A DNA stretch of 64,000 bases from Synechococcus sp. CBW1004 (GTDB taxonomy: Bacteria; Cyanobacteriota; Cyanobacteriia; PCC-6307; Cyanobiaceae), in the NCBI RefSeq assembly GCF_015840715.1, contig NZ_CP060397.1, positions 1,818,686-1,882,685 of the forward strand, read 5' to 3'. The notes beneath the pieces are model-generated. The model searched no databases. It saw nothing but the letters and a program-made list of their open reading frames with translations, and was not told the origin of the DNA. Shown one piece after another: positions 54,692 through 62,862 of the stretch. The position numbers and the translations under genes are program-made. Numbering within the stretch: the stretch's first letter is position 1; each line of letters begins with the position of its first letter.

Positions 54692-55525
54692 ATGCTTGAT
54701 CCAGATCGTCTGCGTGTCGCGGACTTCTACGAATGGCTGGGCTGTCAGACGATCGCCGCTGCCCAACTGGGCTGCAATCAATCCACGGTGAGCCGTCGAT
54801 GCCGTGAGGCCAGGCAGCTGGCCACCGGGCACAGCAGCGTCGCGCAGAAGGACTTCCTCTGTCTGGAGCGCGCCGTGCATCAGCGCTGGCGTTTCGCCAG
54901 GGCGAGGGAGCTGCGTCTGCATGGCTACCGCTGGATCCAGCCGCTGCTGCGCGGCAACCTGCCGGAATCCTGGCGGCTCAATCCAGCCGAAGTGTCGGTC
55001 ACGCCGGTCTGTCCGCTCCAGCTGCTCGGCGATCACGTCATCGACGCCCTCCTGGCGCCCTGGCCCGTGGTCGCCGGCCTGGATCGTCGTCGCTTCGCCC
55101 TGTTCCCCGTCTACTCCACGCCCATGCTGCTGCTGGCACCGGCGGCAGGCTCCCTGGCCCTTCAAACGGGCCTGGGCCATGCCGAGATCGCCGGCTCCAG
55201 CCAGCTGCGGAGGTTGCCCTTCGTGCCGCCATCGGCCTGGGATTGCACGCAGCAACTGGATGGGCAACTGTTCGGCACGGCGGCCACTCCCAGCGAGGAG
55301 ACGCTGGTGGAGAGCCGTTACTGGGGGATGGCGCTGACGCCGCTGATCCGCACCGATCTGGTGGCGCTGCCCTATGAGATCCCCATCGGTTACGGCGAGT
55401 TCCTCGTCTGCCTGCAGGACTGGTCCGGGCATGGGCAGATGGAGCGGCTGTTGTCGGCGATCCGCTGGGTGATGGCCTTCGAAAGCAGGGATCGTCCTCG
55501 GCTGGAGATGCTTGCCGTCGCCTGA
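54692..55525 (+). CDS. Helix-turn-helix protein, LysR-like DNA-binding region
   Basis: 277 residues. The N-terminus FYEWLGCQTIAAAQLGCNQSTVSRRCREARQL (about 12-43) is a helix-turn-helix of the LysR or transposase-like type. The rest (about 95-270) has alternating strands and helices (PVYSTPMLLLAPAAGSLAL, TDLVALPYEIPIGYGEFLVCLQDW) that could be a ligand-binding domain reduced from the LysR form. It is next to the giant phosphatase-like gene and converges with it, so a regulatory link is possible but not shown. Confidence 0.7.
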   Translation: MLDPDRLRVADFYEWLGCQTIAAAQLGCNQSTVSRRCREARQLATGHSSVAQKDFLCLERAVHQRWRFARARELRLHGYRWIQPLLRGNLPESWRLNPAEVSVTPVCPLQLLGDHVIDALLAPWPVVAGLDRRRFALFPVYSTPMLLLAPAAGSLALQTGLGHAEIAGSSQLRRLPFVPPSAWDCTQQLDGQLFGTAATPSEETLVESRYWGMALTPLIRTDLVALPYEIPIGYGEFLVCLQDWSGHGQMERLLSAIRWVMAFESRDRPRLEMLAVA

Positions 55526-55696: not shown

Positions 55697-58600
55697 TCAG
55701 CCGGAGATGAGATCGAAGATGAGATCGACGATCAGGTCGTCGTGATCCTTGTCGCCACCCCCGAAGAGATCTTCAAAGCCCACCTTGTTAGGGGCGAGAA
55801 ACTTGAAGTGGTTGTAGCCATCGTCATTCGCCGCAGCGAAGCTGAAGAAGGTCTGGTTCGTGGTCAGCACGGTGCCATAGAGGGCGACGAGACCCTGATT
55901 GACCTCGTTGAACACGATCGCTTCCGAGGCCGATTGATCATCGGCACGCGACAGCTCGGTGTCGCTGACGCGGTTGCTCTCTGCAAGTGCAGCGGCTGCA
56001 TAGCCGGCATCGCCGGGCTTGTAGATGACTCCCGAAACAGCATCGCGAACATCGCCATTCTCGTTGAGAACCCTGTAGAAGCCGACACGAGAGCTGAAGT
56101 CGGCCTCTCGGGAGGCTGTGGCCTCGGCAGCCACGGCGCTGAAGCCCGTGGAAGCCAGATCGAGCAGGAAGGGGACATCCGGCCCCTGGTAGGCATCGAT
56201 GCCGGTGATGGCGTCGCTGTTCTGGGCCAGATTGCTGACGCGCAGAATCTGCCCACCCTCGACCAGGTTCTGGTCGTCGATGGAGCCTCCCTTGACCCCG
56301 TGGGCCTGGACGGTGAAGAAGAAGTCTGTGCCCGGAGTGTTTCCGTAGAGCGCGGAGACATCGATGATGCCGCTGCTCTCCCAGGCGCCGAGACTGCCGG
56401 CTTCCGTATCGGTCTGGCCGGCGGGGAGTGCGGCATCGCGGTTCATGACGAGGATGCGCTCGGCGTCACCGGAGGTGGCATTCACCTTCCAGATGGAGGC
56501 TTCCTTGCCCTCAAAGGGAGTGGAGCGATCTTCATTGACATAGATTTTGCCGTCAGCGGACCAGGCCAGGTTGTCCGGGCTGCGTACGCCCAGCTGCTGA
56601 TTGTCAGCAGCGTCACCGTCGTAGAGGTGCTTGAGGAGAGCAGTTGCCGGAGCGGTGCCATCGGCATTGAAGCTGACATCGAGAGTCCAGACCGAGCCGA
56701 ACTTGTCATCACCGGCCCTGTCATTCTTCCCGCCACCGGTGGTGTTGAAGGCGATCTGGCTGGGGTCGTTGGGGTTGAAATCCACGTCTTCCACCCGGTA
56801 GCCCATGAAGCCACCCCCGTTGAACACCTCGGTGCGGAGGGTGGGGGCGAGCTTGTAGCCCTGGTCGTCGTAGCCAGGCTGGCCGGCTTTGCTCACATCC
56901 TGAGCATCGATGGCCACCCAGGTGCCTGCATCGGTGCCACCTTCTGCCAGGCCATCCTCATTGCGAACGCCCGTCGTCGATTTCCAGTAGAAGAGCTGGC
57001 CGCCCACCAGGCCGTTGCGCTCGAGGACATTGCCATCGGCCTTCTTGGTGCCGACATAGAGATAGAGGGGAGCGCCTTCTCCGGCGGGACCGTCGTCACC
57101 GAGGAAGTAGGCCACGGTGTCGGTGCTGCCGGTGTCGACCATGGCGGCCGATTCCCAGCCGCCATAGGCCAGGTCGGGAGCGGCCCAGAGCTCACCCTCG
57201 TTGACATCGAGGATCCACATGGTGCCGTTGGTGAATTCCTCCCCCAGCAGGAACAGGCGATCGGCGGCCCCCTTGCCGGGCCCGAAGGTGTTTGCTTCCA
57301 CCAGGTTGGCGGAGCAGAAGCGGTTCAGGCCACCGACCGAGATGCCGGGACCGCGCACCTGAGCCTCGTCGGTGACGAGATCGCCGTTGCGGTCGTAGAT
57401 GGTGTCGTAGGCGAGGCCGCCACTGACCACCTGGCCGGCGTTGTTGACCTCGATGAAGTTGATGCGTGCGCCCTTGAGCTCGGCCCCACTGGCGAGCAGA
57501 TAGCTGTAGCCCTTGTCGTTGCCGATCTCGCTGTTGATCAGGATGCGGATGGTGTCGTCATCGACCCGATAGGCGCCCAGGCCATCGGGGATGCCGGTGG
57601 CCGTGAAGCCCGCGACGCTCTGACCGATGGTGTACAGGGACTCGACGGCATAACCAGGAGCGGAGGGCGTCATGAACGCCTCCACCGCCGGGGCAGCCGC
57701 AGAGGCGGCAACGATCTGCCCACCCTCGACCAGGTTCTGGTCGTCGATGGAGCCTCCCTTGACCCCGTGGGCCTGGACGGTGAAGAAGAAGTCTGTGCCC
57801 GGAGTGTTTCCGTAGAGCGCGGAGACATCGATGATGCCGCTGCTCTCCCAGGCGCCGAGACTGCCGGCTTCCGTATCGGTCTGGCCGGCGGGGAGTGCGG
57901 CATCGCGGTTCATGACGAGGATGCGCTCGGCGTCACCGGAGGTGGCATTCACCTTCCAGATGGAGGCTTCCTTGCCCTCAAAGGGAGTGGAGCGATCTTC
58001 ATTGACATAGATTTTGCCGTCAGCGGACCAGGCCAGGTTGTCCGGGCTGCGTACGCCCAGCTGCTGATTGTCAGCAGCGTCACCGTCGTAGAGGTGCTTG
58101 AGGAGAGCAGTTGCCGGAGCGGTGCCATCGGCATTGAAGCTGACATCGAGAGTCCAGACCGAGCCGAACTTGTCATCACCGGCCCTGTCATTCTTCCCGC
58201 CACCGGTGGTGTTGAAGGCGATCTGGCTGGGGTCGTTGGGGTTGAAATCCACGTCTTCCACCCGGTAGCCCATGAAGCCACCCCCGTTGAACACCTCGGT
58301 GCGGAGGGTGGGGGCGAGCTTGTAGCCCTGGTCGTCGTAGCCAGGCTGGCCGGCTTTGCTCACATCCTGAGCATCGATGGCCACCCAGGTGCCTGCATCG
58401 GTGCCACCTTCTGCCAGGCCATCCTCATTGCGAACGCCCGTCGTCGATTTCCAGTAGAAGAGCTGGCCGCCCACCAGGCCGTTGCGCTCGAGGACATTGC
58501 CATCGGCCTTCTTGGTGCCGACATAGAGATAGAGGGGAGCGCCTTCTCCGGCGGGACCGTCGTCACCGAGGAAGTAGGCCACGGTGTCGGTGCTGCCGGT

Positions 58601-61600
58601 GTCGACCATGGCGGCCGATTCCCAGCCGCCATAGGCCAGGTCGGGAGCGGCCCAGAGCTCACCCTCGTTGACATCGAGGATCCACATGGTGCCGTTGGTG
58701 AATTCCTCCCCCAGCAGGAACAGGCGATCGGCGGCCCCCTTGCCGGGCCCGAAGGTGTTTGCTTCCACCAGGTTGGCGGAGCAGAAGCGGTTCAGGCCAC
58801 CGACCGAGATGCCGGGACCGCGCACCTGAGCCTCGTCGGTGACGAGATCGCCGTTGCGGTCGTAGATGGTGTCGTAGGCGAGGCCGCCACTGACCACCTG
58901 GCCGGCGTTGTTGACCTCGATGAAGTTGATGCGTGCGCCCTTGAGCTCGGCCCCACTGGCGAGCAGATAGCTGTAGCCCTTGTCGTTGCCGATCTCGCTG
59001 TTGATCAGGATGCGGATGGTGTCGTCATCGACCCGATAGGCGCCCAGGCCATCGGGGATGCCGGTGATCCTGCCGGTATCACCACCCCCAATTGTGTAGA
59101 GCGCTTCGGTGCGGAAGCCGCTACCCGACACCGGCAGCATCATCTCGGGCAGTGTGCCGCCGTTGAACTGGTTCTGGTCAGCGGCGGAGCGCACATCGCC
59201 GAAGCGGAAGAACTCGAGTGTGCCTGAGACTTCATTGGCGACCATCAGATAGCCGGTGCCTGACTGGTCGTCACGGATGAACTTCACACCCTCCGGTGAG
59301 ATCGAGGACTGTGACTGAAGCGCCTGCACATAGACCGGCTGGTAGGGATCGGTGATGTCATAGGCCAACACGGTTGAGGTGGTGCCCCGTTCAAGGCCCA
59401 TGAAGGCATAGCGGCGCCCGTTGATCACCTGGGTGGTCACCATCTCGGGCTCGGTGCCCTTGTCGTCGCTGCGGCCTTCGTCGTAGATGCCAAGCTGCTT
59501 GGCGATTTCTTCCAGCTGGTTCCCCGAATCAAAGATCAGATTCTGGTTCTGGTCGTAGATGCGGAAGCTGCGGCTGCCGAAGGCATAGGCCTGGTCGAGC
59601 ACACCATCCCCGTCATAATCACCATCGGTGTTCGACAGATTCAGACGGCTGCCGAGGTTGGCGGTGTCGGCGCCATTGAGACTCCCGGCCCGGGTCTTGT
59701 CGGGGGTGCTGATGCTGTTGGGATCATCGCCAGCGCGATCGTCTCCTTCGCCCACCACGATGATGAAGGTCTCGCCGCCCTGGCTGAAGGCATCAAGGCC
59801 GTCGGCCATGGTGAGGCCGTACAGCTTGCGGACGGCGATGTCATCCGTCTGGCCGTCCCTGTCGTTCGTGTCGATCGGGGTCGGAATGAAGCGCACTTCG
59901 GTGAGGACGTTGTCGGCGCGATCGGCCACCTTGATGAAGTCGTTGTCGAAGCCGAACACGAGCGAGCCATCGGGCTTGAGGGCGAGCCCTTCGGCCTTGT
60001 CGAAGGCAGGATCCGCTCCGCGGACGCTGGGGAGATTGAACAGCTCCTCGCGGCGTGCCATCTGAATGCCCTGGCTGTCCAGCAGATCGGCGATGCTGCC
60101 GAATGGCGTGGTCTTGAGGTCCACCAGCTCCGGTTGGGTGCTTCCACCCAGCACATCAGCCCAGTTTTTGCCGTTCTGGGCCAGCGTGTAATCGAGAGTG
60201 TCTGTGGCGCCTTTGAGATTGATTTCCGTGATCGACTTGTTCGCCGTGGCGCCGAGTTCACTGTCGCGCTCAATGACGAGAAACACATCGCGCTCGGCGT
60301 CATAGACCGCATCACCGATCTTGTCCTGACCGGCCTCGATCGGCAGCAGGCTCAGGTATTCGTGCACAGGCTCGCCGCTCAGGGGGTTGATGGCGAGGAT
60401 GCGGATGAATTCCTTGTTGTTGTAGCCATCCGGGCGCAGAGGGCTCTGTACGAAGGCGTAGAGCAGGCCATCGTTGGGATTGAAGGCCATCCCCTCGAAG
60501 CCGCGGTTCGCCTGGCGATCGCCGTAAACCGCCGGCAGCGAGAAGGTGGTGTAGCCAGCCACATCACCGCGGCCTGCGGCGTAATCGCTGGGATTGAAAA
60601 CAGTGTTGCTGGCAACGAAGCGCTGGATCAGGTTGCCCGTGCTTGCATCGAACAGAGCCACCTGAGGGCGGTATTCGTCGGAGACGGCGAATACCGGATT
60701 GCCGCCATTGAGACCGGGCAGCGTGAATGCGTTGATCGACTCGGTGTCCAGGCCGAAGGCATCCCAGCCCACCTGTTCGTAGACGTTGTACTGGTTGGGG
60801 TCACCGGCGATGCCGTTGCCGGCCGTCTTCAGAGCGAAGGCCTTGTCGTCGGTGCCGGGCAGTTCGCCGATGCCGGTGGCCAGACGGAAGCCGCCGTTGC
60901 CGTCGGGCACTTTCAGGCTGATGGTGTCGACCACCGTGACAACGCCGTCGTTGTTGGCCAGGCGGTAGACCGTCGGCGCGAAGTCGGGATCGTCGAAGAT
61001 CTTCTCGCCTCTGTTCGGATCGTTCGGGTTGTCATTGGGGCGATCGCCGATGTTCGCGGCCTGGGGGCCGCGATCGCTGATCGTGAGGTAAAACTCGCTT
61101 GTTCCCTCTTTGCCCTCGTACCACAGACCGGAGAGGCCGCCGGCGATCACTTCACCGGCCTCAACGGTTCCGTTGCCATTGAAATCGGGGCGGGTGCCGG
61201 TGTAGGCGAGATCAAAGGCGTAGTTGCTGGCCTCGGGGGTGCCGCGGCTCCAGTCCTTGATCCCGAGACTCCAGATGTCGCTGAGCTTGCCGCTGGCCAG
61301 ATCCACCTCGGCGATGGCGTTGTTCTCCTGCAATGTCACGTAGGCCTTGTTGCCCACGATTGCGATGGCTTCCGGCTCAAAATCCTGGGCGGCGGTGGCT
61401 CCGGGAGTGCCTTCATTCAGGCGGATGCCCAGCAGACCCAGCTTCACCTTCTGATTGTTGTAGGCCTCAAAGCCCAGCGTGGTGACAGCAAAACCATTGG
61501 CGTCGGTGGTGGCTGCCGTGAAGCTGCTCACGTCGATCAGGGAGATCGAACCCACCGCATCGGTGGTGGTGCTGTCGATCGCTTCGCCTTCGTTGGCCAC

Positions 61601-61978
61601 CACAAGCCTGGTGCCGGCGGCATTGAATGCCACCGAATCCGGCAGGGCACCCACCTTCACCTCCCCGAGTGCCGTGAGGGTCGTCTGTTCACCGGTGCCG
61701 GACAGGCGCAGGAACAGGATGCTGCCTTCCTCGGCCTTGTCAGTCGGGTTCACCAGGGCCACCGCCACCAGATCACCGCTCACGGCAACGCTCTGGGCGG
61801 CAGCGGGAAGCGCGAACGCGCTCAGCAGCTGTGGATTGCTGATGGAGCTGAGGTTGACAAGTCGCAGGCTGTTGTCGCCACCGGTGACCAGGGCAACGGC
61901 ATGCTCTGAAGAGAACGTGGCGATTTCTGCTCCACCCAGATCGATGCTGGAGAGAGGGCCTGTGGTCAGCGCAGACAT
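55697..61978 (-). CDS. Giant secreted phosphatase/phytase-like protein with duplicated PhoX-type module
   Basis: 2,093 residues. Part 1 (about 1-180) is the first half of a choice-of-anchor-I propeller (SVAVSGDLVAVALVNP, LPDSVAFNAAGTRLVVANEGEA). Part 2 (about 255-800) is an esterase-like phytase domain (YEGKEGTSEFYLTISDRGPQ, GFEGMAFNPNDGLLYAFVQ, KAEGLALKPDGSLVFGFDND). Part 3 (about 860-955) looks like the propeller's other half (TEPEMVTTQVINGRRYAFMGLER, SPEGVKFI). Parts 4 and 5 (about 971-1422 and 1460-1911) are two identical PhoX/DUF839-like modules, each with GLNRFCSANLVEANTF and NRDGDxx-like Asp-rich loops. A C-terminal DUF4114 domain (DDGYNHFKF, VGFEDLFGGGDKDHDDLIVDL) ends the chain. Calcium-binding Asp-rich loops occur (DFNGNGTVEAGEV, DGDYDGDGVLD). 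No N-terminal signal peptide is present, which with DUF4114 points to type I secretion. Likely role: hydrolysis of organic phosphate outside the cell, probably under Pho control. Confidence 0.88.
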   Translation of the reverse strand: MSALTTGPLSSIDLGGAEIATFSSEHAVALVTGGDNSLRLVNLSSISNPQLLSAFALPAAAQSVAVSGDLVAVALVNPTDKAEEGSILFLRLSGTGEQTTLTALGEVKVGALPDSVAFNAAGTRLVVANEGEAIDSTTTDAVGSISLIDVSSFTAATTDANGFAVTTLGFEAYNNQKVKLGLLGIRLNEGTPGATAAQDFEPEAIAIVGNKAYVTLQENNAIAEVDLASGKLSDIWSLGIKDWSRGTPEASNYAFDLAYTGTRPDFNGNGTVEAGEVIAGGLSGLWYEGKEGTSEFYLTISDRGPQAANIGDRPNDNPNDPNRGEKIFDDPDFAPTVYRLANNDGVVTVVDTISLKVPDGNGGFRLATGIGELPGTDDKAFALKTAGNGIAGDPNQYNVYEQVGWDAFGLDTESINAFTLPGLNGGNPVFAVSDEYRPQVALFDASTGNLIQRFVASNTVFNPSDYAAGRGDVAGYTTFSLPAVYGDRQANRGFEGMAFNPNDGLLYAFVQSPLRPDGYNNKEFIRILAINPLSGEPVHEYLSLLPIEAGQDKIGDAVYDAERDVFLVIERDSELGATANKSITEINLKGATDTLDYTLAQNGKNWADVLGGSTQPELVDLKTTPFGSIADLLDSQGIQMARREELFNLPSVRGADPAFDKAEGLALKPDGSLVFGFDNDFIKVADRADNVLTEVRFIPTPIDTNDRDGQTDDIAVRKLYGLTMADGLDAFSQGGETFIIVVGEGDDRAGDDPNSISTPDKTRAGSLNGADTANLGSRLNLSNTDGDYDGDGVLDQAYAFGSRSFRIYDQNQNLIFDSGNQLEEIAKQLGIYDEGRSDDKGTEPEMVTTQVINGRRYAFMGLERGTTSTVLAYDITDPYQPVYVQALQSQSSISPEGVKFIRDDQSGTGYLMVANEVSGTLEFFRFGDVRSAADQNQFNGGTLPEMMLPVSGSGFRTEALYTIGGGDTGRITGIPDGLGAYRVDDDTIRILINSEIGNDKGYSYLLASGAELKGARINFIEVNNAGQVVSGGLAYDTIYDRNGDLVTDEAQVRGPGISVGGLNRFCSANLVEANTFGPGKGAADRLFLLGEEFTNGTMWILDVNEGELWAAPDLAYGGWESAAMVDTGSTDTVAYFLGDDGPAGEGAPLYLYVGTKKADGNVLERNGLVGGQLFYWKSTTGVRNEDGLAEGGTDAGTWVAIDAQDVSKAGQPGYDDQGYKLAPTLRTEVFNGGGFMGYRVEDVDFNPNDPSQIAFNTTGGGKNDRAGDDKFGSVWTLDVSFNADGTAPATALLKHLYDGDAADNQQLGVRSPDNLAWSADGKIYVNEDRSTPFEGKEASIWKVNATSGDAERILVMNRDAALPAGQTDTEAGSLGAWESSGIIDVSALYGNTPGTDFFFTVQAHGVKGGSIDDQNLVEGGQIVAASAAAPAVEAFMTPSAPGYAVESLYTIGQSVAGFTATGIPDGLGAYRVDDDTIRILINSEIGNDKGYSYLLASGAELKGARINFIEVNNAGQVVSGGLAYDTIYDRNGDLVTDEAQVRGPGISVGGLNRFCSANLVEANTFGPGKGAADRLFLLGEEFTNGTMWILDVNEGELWAAPDLAYGGWESAAMVDTGSTDTVAYFLGDDGPAGEGAPLYLYVGTKKADGNVLERNGLVGGQLFYWKSTTGVRNEDGLAEGGTDAGTWVAIDAQDVSKAGQPGYDDQGYKLAPTLRTEVFNGGGFMGYRVEDVDFNPNDPSQIAFNTTGGGKNDRAGDDKFGSVWTLDVSFNADGTAPATALLKHLYDGDAADNQQLGVRSPDNLAWSADGKIYVNEDRSTPFEGKEASIWKVNATSGDAERILVMNRDAALPAGQTDTEAGSLGAWESSGIIDVSALYGNTPGTDFFFTVQAHGVKGGSIDDQNLVEGGQILRVSNLAQNSDAITGIDAYQGPDVPFLLDLASTGFSAVAAEATASREADFSSRVGFYRVLNENGDVRDAVSGVIYKPGDAGYAAAALAESNRVSDTELSRADDQSASEAIVFNEVNQGLVALYGTVLTTNQTFFSFAAANDDGYNHFKFLAPNKVGFEDLFGGGDKDHDDLIVDLIFDLISG
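56248..57599 (-). repeat. 1,352-bp direct repeat, copy coding the second PhoX-like module
   Basis: This block matches 57715-59066 with a constant offset of 1,467 bp. Translations in the sense frame and in other frames are identical across both copies, so the DNA is identical or nearly so. It codes residues about 1460-1911. A 115-bp unique spacer (57600-57714) separates the copies. Confidence 0.92.
57715..59066 (-). repeat. 1,352-bp direct repeat, copy coding the first PhoX-like module
   Basis: The partner of 56248-57599, coding residues about 971-1422. Identity ends abruptly on both sides (at the codons after GGQI and before TGIPDG), as expected for a recent in-frame tandem duplication. Confidence 0.92.
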
Positions 61979-62079: not shown

Positions 62080-62109
62080 TGGTTATCGGGGGATTAACTT
62101 CCGGCTAAC
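62080..62109 (-). promoter_or_regulatory. Pho-box-like triple repeat upstream of the giant gene
   Basis: On the minus strand three octamers, GTTAGCCG, GTTAATCC and GATAACCA, are separated by 3 bp each (GAA, CCC), an exact 11-bp period. Cyanobacterial PhoB (SphR) sites are such direct repeats of PyTTAAPyPy(T/A) with 3-bp gaps. The cores match loosely, two of three well. The site lies 102-131 bp upstream of the ATG at 61978. It suggests induction by phosphate shortage. Confidence 0.5.
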
Positions 62110-62166: not shown

Positions 62167-62778
62167 TCACGCATCGGTGTTGCTGCGAAGCGGTTGCATT
62201 CCAATGTTGAAGCTGATGCAGATTCTTGGTTTGCTGCTGCAGCTTCGCTCAACCTCGTGCCAGAGCCAGCCCGGAAACAGCAGCAGCAGGCCTGGCCGGG
62301 GTTGACGCAGCACACGCCCGCAGGCATAGCCAGCCGCAGGATCGCGCAGGGGTGGGAGCAGCACCTGGGCCCCGGCGCGAGGATCCAGCAGGGCAATGGC
62401 GCCGCTGCCTTCCGGAGCGGTGAGATACAGCACGCCGCTGAACAGGCTGTTGGGATGCAGGTGGGCCCGGACCGAATGCCCTTCCCGGTTCACCATGGCC
62501 CAGGCGTTGTTGAAGCAGGGGCTGGCTCGGCCTGTATCCCAGCCGATGCTCTCCATCGCCTGCTGGGTGCAGCCCGCGATCCATCGGAACAGACGGTTCA
62601 GCTCCGGATCCTTCAGCAGATCGGTCTGGCTGTGCCACCCTCCCTGATTGGTGAGCGTCAGGCCGCTGGCGTCGTTGCACTCGAGGCGGAGAATGTGTTC
62701 GCTCCAGGTGAGCAGCTGATCCCGGTCCGGATAGTCGAAACTCCAGAGTGGAGTCGCGAACAGTGCTGTTGCCTCCAT
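62167..62778 (-). CDS. TIGR02466-type putative 2-oxoglutarate/Fe(II) oxygenase
   Basis: 203 residues from ATG 62778. Family features: ATALFATPLWSFDYPD, GGWHSQTDLLKDPEL, FNNAWAMVNREGHSVRAHLHPNSLFSGVLYL (first His of the iron site), and the end LLLLFPGWLWHEVERS...PRICISFNIG with the second His. Originally described as a phage-related family, it has the double-stranded beta-helix of Fe(II)-dependent oxygenases. The substrate is unknown. It lies upstream of the giant gene on the same strand with 188 bp between, which contain the Pho-box-like repeats. Confidence 0.85.
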   Translation of the reverse strand: MEATALFATPLWSFDYPDRDQLLTWSEHILRLECNDASGLTLTNQGGWHSQTDLLKDPELNRLFRWIAGCTQQAMESIGWDTGRASPCFNNAWAMVNREGHSVRAHLHPNSLFSGVLYLTAPEGSGAIALLDPRAGAQVLLPPLRDPAAGYACGRVLRQPRPGLLLLFPGWLWHEVERSCSSKPRICISFNIGMQPLRSNTDA

Positions 62779-62862
62779 GGTCTGCCTGGCCGTGGGAGAG
62801 CTGTCGCTCGCGCTGACTGCCGGATCAATCTGGCAGGCCGCTCCCATGGCGCCGTCCCCGCT

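What the first reader, a model, noticed from the sequence alone, without database searches (positions are those of the whole stretch)
55697..61978. A 2,093-residue exoenzyme combining phytase-like and twin PhoX-like modules
The domain order is unusual: a choice-of-anchor-I propeller seems split by an inserted phytase-like esterase domain, followed by two PhoX/DUF839-like modules and a DUF4114 end. Known phosphatases of cyanobacteria usually carry one of these activities. A single secreted chain that could release phosphate from both phytate-like esters and simple monoesters would be notable. It has no N-terminal signal peptide, so type I secretion is implied.
Basis: partly seen in the sequence, partly recalled or inferred. 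Interest (0 to 1): 0.75.

Follow-up and report, generated by a model that had tools for sequence, protein, structure and literature searches.

The report
Phosphate-starvation multi-phosphatase with twin modules
A picocyanobacterium (Cyanobium) encodes one giant, probably exported phosphate-scavenging protein with a phytase-like domain inserted in a propeller and two PhoX-type phosphatase modules that are letter-for-letter identical over 1,353 bases; it is one member of a mix-and-match family of fused phosphatases, and its substrates are still untested.

Summary
The 2,093-aa ORF is real and its domain reading mostly holds. Residues 1-245 and 701-935 are two halves of one choice-of-anchor-I (CAI) propeller, split by a Pfam 'phytase-like' (PF13449) insert: five relatives have the propeller without the insert, and the model superposes on single seven-bladed propellers from residue 6 to 926. 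Two PhoX-like modules follow. Their predicted fold matches Pseudomonas fluorescens PhoX far better than anything else by Foldseek, and PhoX residues E273, D292, R385 and E387 are conserved; the protein's only two cysteines sit where the PhoX iron ligand is expected, one per module. The modules share an exact 1,353-bp DNA repeat (0 of 248 fourfold codons differ; 46% of sites differ from the orthologue) although their first ~32 residues have diverged, pointing to gene conversion or unequal crossover. And a tandem Pho box lies 131 bp upstream, one of four pattern hits in the genome, recurring in both orthologues. Relatives shuffle the same parts with 5'-nucleotidase, PhoD, GDPD and nested PhoX modules. 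Best reading: a Pho-regulated, exported multi-phosphoesterase. Phytate activity and type I export remain inferences.

The parts
55697..61978 (-). gene for the 2,093-aa multi-domain protein (calculated 221 kDa, pI 4.2)
61244..61978 (-). aa 1-245, first half of the choice-of-anchor-I seven-bladed propeller
   Evidence: PF22494 profile 58-235; A1; model
59879..61243 (-). aa 246-700, inserted phytase-like (PF13449) domain; Pfam core aa 280-681
   Evidence: 104.6 bits; absent from the CAI domain of L053, L054, L062, L063, L064
59174..59878 (-). aa 701-935, second half of the CAI propeller
   Evidence: PF22494 profile 252-487; NF038117 336.7 bits in two stretches
57707..59161 (-). PhoX-like module 1, aa 940-1424
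56246..57706 (-). PhoX-like module 2, aa 1425-1911
57714..59066 (-). exact repeat, copy 1 (1,353 bp)
56247..57599 (-). exact repeat, copy 2 (1,353 bp), identical to copy 1
58781..58783 (-). Cys1066 codon, module 1; one of only two Cys in the protein; proposed equivalent of PhoX Cys179
   Evidence: column near-invariant; equivalence inferred from motif order
57314..57316 (-). Cys1555 codon, module 2; the other Cys
55700..56245 (-). C-terminal tail aa 1912-2093 with DUF4114-like end (aa 2039-2086)
   Evidence: 25.2 bits, under the cut-off of 27; same tail in two other proteins of this genome scores above it
62080..62109 (-). predicted Pho box, three 8-bp units at 11-bp period, 131 to 102 bp upstream of the ATG

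Best explanation
This is a phosphate-starvation-induced, exported multi-domain phosphoesterase. A CAI propeller carries a phytase-like hydrolase domain in one loop. It is followed by two catalytically competent PhoX/Psip1-type modules (Ca/Fe propellers that cleave phosphomonoesters) and by a DUF4114-type tail that probably serves export or surface attachment. Under low phosphate, PhoB binds the upstream Pho box and the protein is made, exported without a Sec/Tat signal (probably type I), and releases Pi from organic phosphate outside the inner membrane for Pst uptake. The twin modules arose by duplication and were recently homogenised by gene conversion or unequal crossover. Shown computationally: domain composition, insertion, PhoX fold and active-site motifs, exact repeat, Pho-box match. 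Inferred: induction, export route, substrates, activity.
For: PhoX fold: AlphaFold2 model pLDDT 86.5, pTM 0.91; Foldseek puts PfPhoX first at 7.4e-17 against 5.7e-6 for the first unrelated fold; VIA Z 24.2, rmsd 3.9, 405 residues aligned (other propellers tie in Z but align only about 240-300 residues). A profile of the modules finds PfPhoX in the PDB at 9e-5, aligning E273, D292, R385 and E387, and matches the genome's own PhoX at 2.6e-5. The protein's only Cys are C1066 and C1555, one at the same place in each module, in a near-invariant column. Insertion. Regulation: best Pho-box score in the 64-kb window; one of four hits in 3.67 Mb, two others overlapping in the gap between a PstS-like gene and a Crp-type plus PhoB-type regulator pair; orthologues G032 and G028 carry their own box 136 bp upstream, 0 of 500 shuffles as good for all three. 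Repeat: 0 of 248 fourfold codons differ, against 100 of 216 sites to the orthologue. Literature: the Nodularia 'atypical alkaline phosphatase (esterase-like activity of phytase family protein)' is strongly induced by P limitation, with a DUF4114 gene beside it (PMC9846622).
Against: No expression, secretion or activity data. PhoX identity at sequence level is low (14-18% in the structure alignments). Equivalence of the module Cys and Glu-Glu to PhoX C179/E194 was not produced by any alignment tool (searches fail there). The DUF4114 match is below its cut-off. The Pho box has 2 mismatches of 18 scored positions, and the backwards control pattern also gives one hit. The CAI domain has no known activity of its own. 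The 100% identity could be slightly inflated by read polishing.
Confidence: 0.68

Rival explanations
1. The PhoX-like and phytase-like modules are mainly binding or structural propellers (substrate capture, adhesion, Ca-dependent surface layer) with little or no catalysis.
For: Beta-propellers are often non-catalytic; unrelated lactonase, DFPase and NHL propellers tie with PhoX in VIA Z; PhoX Pfam score per module is only 31.8 bits; PF13449 activity is a family name.
Against: Active-site motifs, not only the fold, are kept across diverse relatives; the only two Cys of 2,093 residues lie at the proposed iron-ligand place; relatives join the same modules to PhoD, GDPD and 5'-nucleotidase; Pho box upstream.
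Confidence: 0.15
2. The two modules are a very recent simple tandem duplication with no lasting role; identity reflects age alone and copy number drifts neutrally.
For: Exact 1,353-bp identity; other tandem pairs at 93% (G117), 86% over 209 bp (G174) and 74% (L144) suggest duplications of different ages.
Against: The N-terminal ~32 residues of the two modules are diverged, so a simple copy of the whole module does not fit; contigs of several draft relatives end inside this module, as repeats would cause.
Confidence: 0.3
3. The exact repeat is an assembly or polishing artefact and the gene has one module or two diverged ones.
For: Identical copies are hard to polish independently (general knowledge; nothing in the data points to it).
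Against: Single 3.67-Mb contig; the copies have different flanks and a diverged module start between them, all in one frame; short-read errors collapse repeats rather than create them.
Confidence: 0.05

Closest known systems
Atypical alkaline phosphatase PhoA(aty) of cyanobacteria (PCC 7942 type; PMC4548154, PMC9846622)
   Same: CAI propeller with or without a phytase-like insert; P-limitation induced in Nodularia; an S. elongatus-like genome carries 5'-nucleotidase + uninterrupted CAI in a 1,378-aa ORF, and CAI rings in the named S. elongatus control
   Different: here no 5'-nucleotidase half; two PhoX-like modules and a DUF4114-like tail instead. That the 1,378-aa ORF is the published PhoA(aty) was not proven here.
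PhoX of Pseudomonas fluorescens (3zwu, 4a9v)
   Same: fold, order of active-site motifs, conserved E273, D292, R385, E387
   Different: very low identity, shorter, duplicated, fused, no Tat signal; the genome also has an ordinary PhoX at C1:3579308 (284.5 bits)
Psip1 of marine picocyanobacteria (PMC11098088)
   Same: PhoX-like active site on a distant propeller in a picocyanobacterium, without a signal peptide in Synechococcus
   Different: direct sequence relation was not tested here; Psip1 is described as a separate phosphatase, not as a CAI/phytase-like fusion
CAI + single PhoX-like proteins (~1,050-1,150 aa) of Cyanobium/Synechococcus
   Same: same CAI and module, about 38-49% identity
   Different: no phytase-like insert, one module, no DUF4114-like tail

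Membership tests
choice-of-anchor I (PF22494 / NF038117) | curated score reached over the whole propeller | tested here: met
   151.8 bits (cut-off 32) and 336.7 bits (cut-off 300), two stretches
Phytase-like PF13449 | curated score reached over the full profile | tested here: met
   104.6 bits (cut-off 27.6), profile 4-284 of 284
Phytase-like PF13449 | hydrolysis of phytate | not testable with these tools
   name only; needs assay
PhoX (PF05787) | curated score reached | tested here: met
   49.7 bits, 31.8 per copy (cut-off 24), partial profile 240-451
PhoX (PF05787) | PhoX fold | tested here: met
PhoX (PF05787) | active-site residues E273, D292, R385, E387 | tested here: met
   profile alignment; E1120, D1139, R1239, E1241 and the same in copy 2
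PhoX (PF05787) | Cys179 and Glu194 metal ligands | tested here: inconclusive
   near-invariant Cys and Glu-Glu in the right order, but no alignment joined them
PhoX (PF05787) | Tat signal peptide | tested here: not met
   modules are internal; protein starts directly in CAI, frame opens about 7 codons before ATG
DUF4114 (PF13448) | curated score reached | tested here: not met
   25.2 bits against 27; kinship with tails that pass
PhoA(aty) | CAI plus 5'-nucleotidase in one chain | tested here: not met
   no 5_nucleotid_C match
Pho regulon member | tandem Pho box upstream | tested here: met
Pho regulon member | induction by phosphate starvation | not testable with these tools
   needs expression data
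Psip1 | sequence homology to Psip1 | not tested
   no Psip1 sequence was fetched
Type I secretion substrate | C-terminal export signal used by an ABC/HlyD/TolC system | not testable with these tools
   HlyD-type adaptor present at 328.8 bits; signal not demonstrable

The most novel reading that the evidence does not exclude
Aquatic bacteria, notably Cyanobium-type picocyanobacteria, build giant exported phosphatases from an interchangeable kit (CAI, phytase-like, 5'-nucleotidase, PhoD, GDPD, PhoX-like) by inserting domains into propeller loops, and repeatedly amplify PhoX-like modules in tandem and keep them identical by gene conversion, raising the number of active sites per exported chain.
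Probability: 0.45. Interest if true: 0.65.

Novelty: new variant of a known kind. Interest (0 to 1): 0.52.

Why it matters
Alkaline-phosphatase surveys usually count phoA, phoD and phoX as separate genes. If single exported chains carry several different phosphoesterases with variable numbers of identical PhoX modules, such surveys undercount and mislabel organic-phosphorus use, and short-read assemblies would tend to break or collapse these genes. The nested domains and homogenised copies also make a clean case for testing how multi-enzyme chains evolve under phosphate limitation.

Tried and rejected
(1) Phmmer of the single module, and of the CAI/phytase half, against the PDB gave only chance hits; profiles were needed. 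(3) Psip1 membership was considered; no Psip1 sequence was fetched, so it stays untested. (4) MAFFT and hhalign against the genome's own PhoX did not align the Cys and Glu-Glu region; that equivalence is inference. (5) PhoD was sought in the own genome and not found, so the PhoD fusions belong to relatives only. (6) Another source for the repeat in the genome: none beyond the two copies, only 34-50-base matches. (7) The stricter Pho-box pattern with a leading pyrimidine misses this gene's box at 3 mismatches; the TTAAYY form finds it. That form was chosen after seeing the box, so the orthologue test is the more independent one. (8) L144, titled Candidatus Planktophila, has 35% GC and a weak Por_Secre_tail match (25.7 bits, cut-off 27) and may be a misbinned Bacteroidota contig; it is not used as evidence for an actinobacterial host. 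(9) Foldseek of the 945-residue N-terminal model gave multi-propeller hits at very low TM-scores; only the VIA superposition was used.
Full report
OBSERVATION. The ORF is as described: 55697-61978 on the minus strand, 2,093 aa from ATG. Pfam and NCBIfam confirm choice-of-anchor I in two stretches, a full-length phytase-like domain at 280-681, two PhoX matches and a sub-threshold DUF4114 end. The genome is one 3.67-Mb contig. The genus is Cyanobium: contigs tagged 'same genus' have the same lengths as named Cyanobium records (G029:C41, 347,883 bases, Cyanobium sp. FGCU6; G014:C30, 34,750 bases, Cyanobium sp. CACIAM 14).

THE INSERTION. The two CAI stretches match profile positions 58-235 and 252-487 of one family. 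Five relatives (L053, L054, L062, L063, L064) carry the same propeller with nothing at this place: in alignment A1 their chain runs directly from the window's residue ~244 to ~700. The predicted model of residues 1-945 (pLDDT 76.2, pTM 0.76) superposes on single seven-bladed propellers such as E. coli YncE over 288 residues at 2.1-2.2 A, with the aligned range running from residue 6 to 926. Coordinates were not inspected directly.

THE PhoX MODULES. The module model (pLDDT 86.5, pTM 0.91) finds P. fluorescens PhoX first in the PDB at 7.4e-17, about eleven orders of magnitude ahead of the first unrelated propeller, and aligns 405 residues at Z 24. A profile of 18 relatives finds PfPhoX by sequence at 9e-5; that alignment pairs the module's WE, D and RxE motifs with E273, D292, R385 and E387 (D292 and R385 are named as active-site residues in PMC11098088). 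The same motifs align with the genome's own ordinary PhoX. Both copies keep all of them: E1120, D1139, R1239, E1241 and E1609, D1628, R1728, E1730. The whole protein has only two cysteines, C1066 and C1555, one at the same site in each module, in a near-invariant FCSA motif. I take this as the equivalent of the PhoX iron ligand C179 (the ligand role is from memory), from motif order; no alignment proved it.

THE EXACT REPEAT. The modules are identical over 1,353 bp, period 1,467 bp, and occur nowhere else in the genome. None of 248 fourfold-degenerate codons differs between copies, whereas 100 of 216 such sites differ from the orthologue G032. Yet the first ~32 residues of the two modules have diverged, as has the linker. 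A fresh copy of the whole module would not look like this; recent homogenisation of two older modules by gene conversion or unequal crossover does. Tandem pairs recur independently: 93% DNA identity in G117, where the pair lies inside the phytase-like domain; 86% over 209 bp between two G174 contigs; 74% in L144. In eight draft relatives (G011, G015, G021, G028, G032, G034, G174, G193) contigs end inside this module type. The G032 contig ends within about 9 bp of where the window's two copies diverge, and two G028 contigs share an exact 143-bp end. The roughly thirty single-module CAI-PhoX genes in the same tables are nearly all intact. This is suggestive of repeats; strain mixture in metagenome bins could also cut contigs.

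REGULATION. A scan for three Pho-box units at 11-bp period puts its best score of the whole 64-kb window at 62109 (-), 131 bp upstream of the ATG. In the entire genome the pattern TTAAYY x3 with up to 2 mismatches has four hits: this one; two overlapping ones in the gap between a PstS-like gene and a Crp-type plus PhoB-type regulator pair (my reading of the ORFs); and one near genes of no evident link. The backwards control gives one hit. Orthologues G032 and G028 carry a different but equally good box 136 bp upstream; none of 500 shuffles reached it in any of the three. Most CAI-phytase relatives have weaker boxes.

RELATIVES AND WHAT THE KIT LOOKS LIKE. Close orthologues exist in two MAGs (71-88% by segment). 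In the same genus: CAI-phytase-like-CAI followed by 5'-nucleotidase (G022, G034, G035); PhoD followed by this PhoX-like module (G011); a PhoX-like module nested inside the phytase-like domain, itself inside CAI (G002, G010, G026, G030). Outside the genus: PhoX-CAI-phytase-like-CAI in a Xenococcaceae MAG (L118), GDPD-phytase-like-PhoX-RTX in Phormidesmis (L137), phytase-like-PhoX-PhoX in L144. An S. elongatus-like genome has 5'-nucleotidase plus uninterrupted CAI, 1,378 aa, consistent with the 'atypical alkaline phosphatase'; the identification with that published protein is from memory and literature, not proven here. In Nodularia the 'atypical alkaline phosphatase (esterase-like activity of phytase family protein)' is strongly induced by P limitation with a DUF4114 gene beside it (PMC9846622), and alkaline phosphatases and a phytase-like protein are found in Synechococcus exoproteomes (PMC4949707).

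MECHANISM AND VERDICT. Most likely, low phosphate activates PhoB, the gene is transcribed, the acidic 221-kDa chain is exported without Sec/Tat signal, folds outside with Ca, and its modules release Pi. Domain composition, insertion, PhoX fold, motifs, repeat and box are computational results; induction, export and activities are inferred. 'Phytase' should be read as a family name. The protein is a new variant of a known kind of cyanobacterial exo-phosphatase; the twin identical modules and the combinatorial family are the noteworthy part.

Noticed in passing
L048, L049, L050, L051 (G030, G002, G026, G010): A PhoX-like module is inserted inside the phytase-like domain, which is itself inserted inside the CAI propeller: a three-level nested domain arrangement.
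   Followed up: partly
L107:1628-9940 (-), G117: The nested PhoX-like module is duplicated in tandem, 93% DNA identity over 1,365 bp, plus a 5'-nucleotidase domain, in a 2,771-aa ORF.
   Followed up: partly
L042:2175-9206 (-), G022: Near a CAI-phytase-like-5'-nucleotidase gene lies a 2,344-aa ORF with endonuclease/exonuclease/phosphatase, PhoD and DUF4114 domains: another fused phosphatase.
   Followed up: partly
L042 9208-9818 and 12761-13371: A 611-bp stretch repeated at 95% identity at the ends of two neighbouring genes of the G022 phosphatase cluster.
   Followed up: no
L118:7953-12722 (+): Xenococcaceae MAG with the reverse order, PhoX-like first and then CAI-phytase-like-CAI.
   Followed up: no
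L144:5975-11524 (+): Contig titled Planktophila but 35% GC and with a weak Bacteroidota-type sorting-domain match; codes for phytase-like plus two PhoX-like modules (74% DNA identity); probably misbinned.
   Followed up: partly
G000:C1:3557517-3557556 (L169): Overlapping Pho boxes between a PstS-like gene and a Crp-type plus PhoB-type regulator pair.
   Followed up: partly
G000:C1:435733-436554: A second, stand-alone phytase-like protein (376-aa frame, 131.4 bits) in the same genome.
   Followed up: no
window 54692-55525 (+): Gene next to the phosphatase gene with no Pfam match at 0.001; its start reads like a DNA-binding helix-turn-helix region.
   Followed up: no
window 62167-62847 (-): Upstream neighbour is a putative 2OG-Fe(II) oxygenase (PF13759, 88.4 bits).
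   Followed up: no
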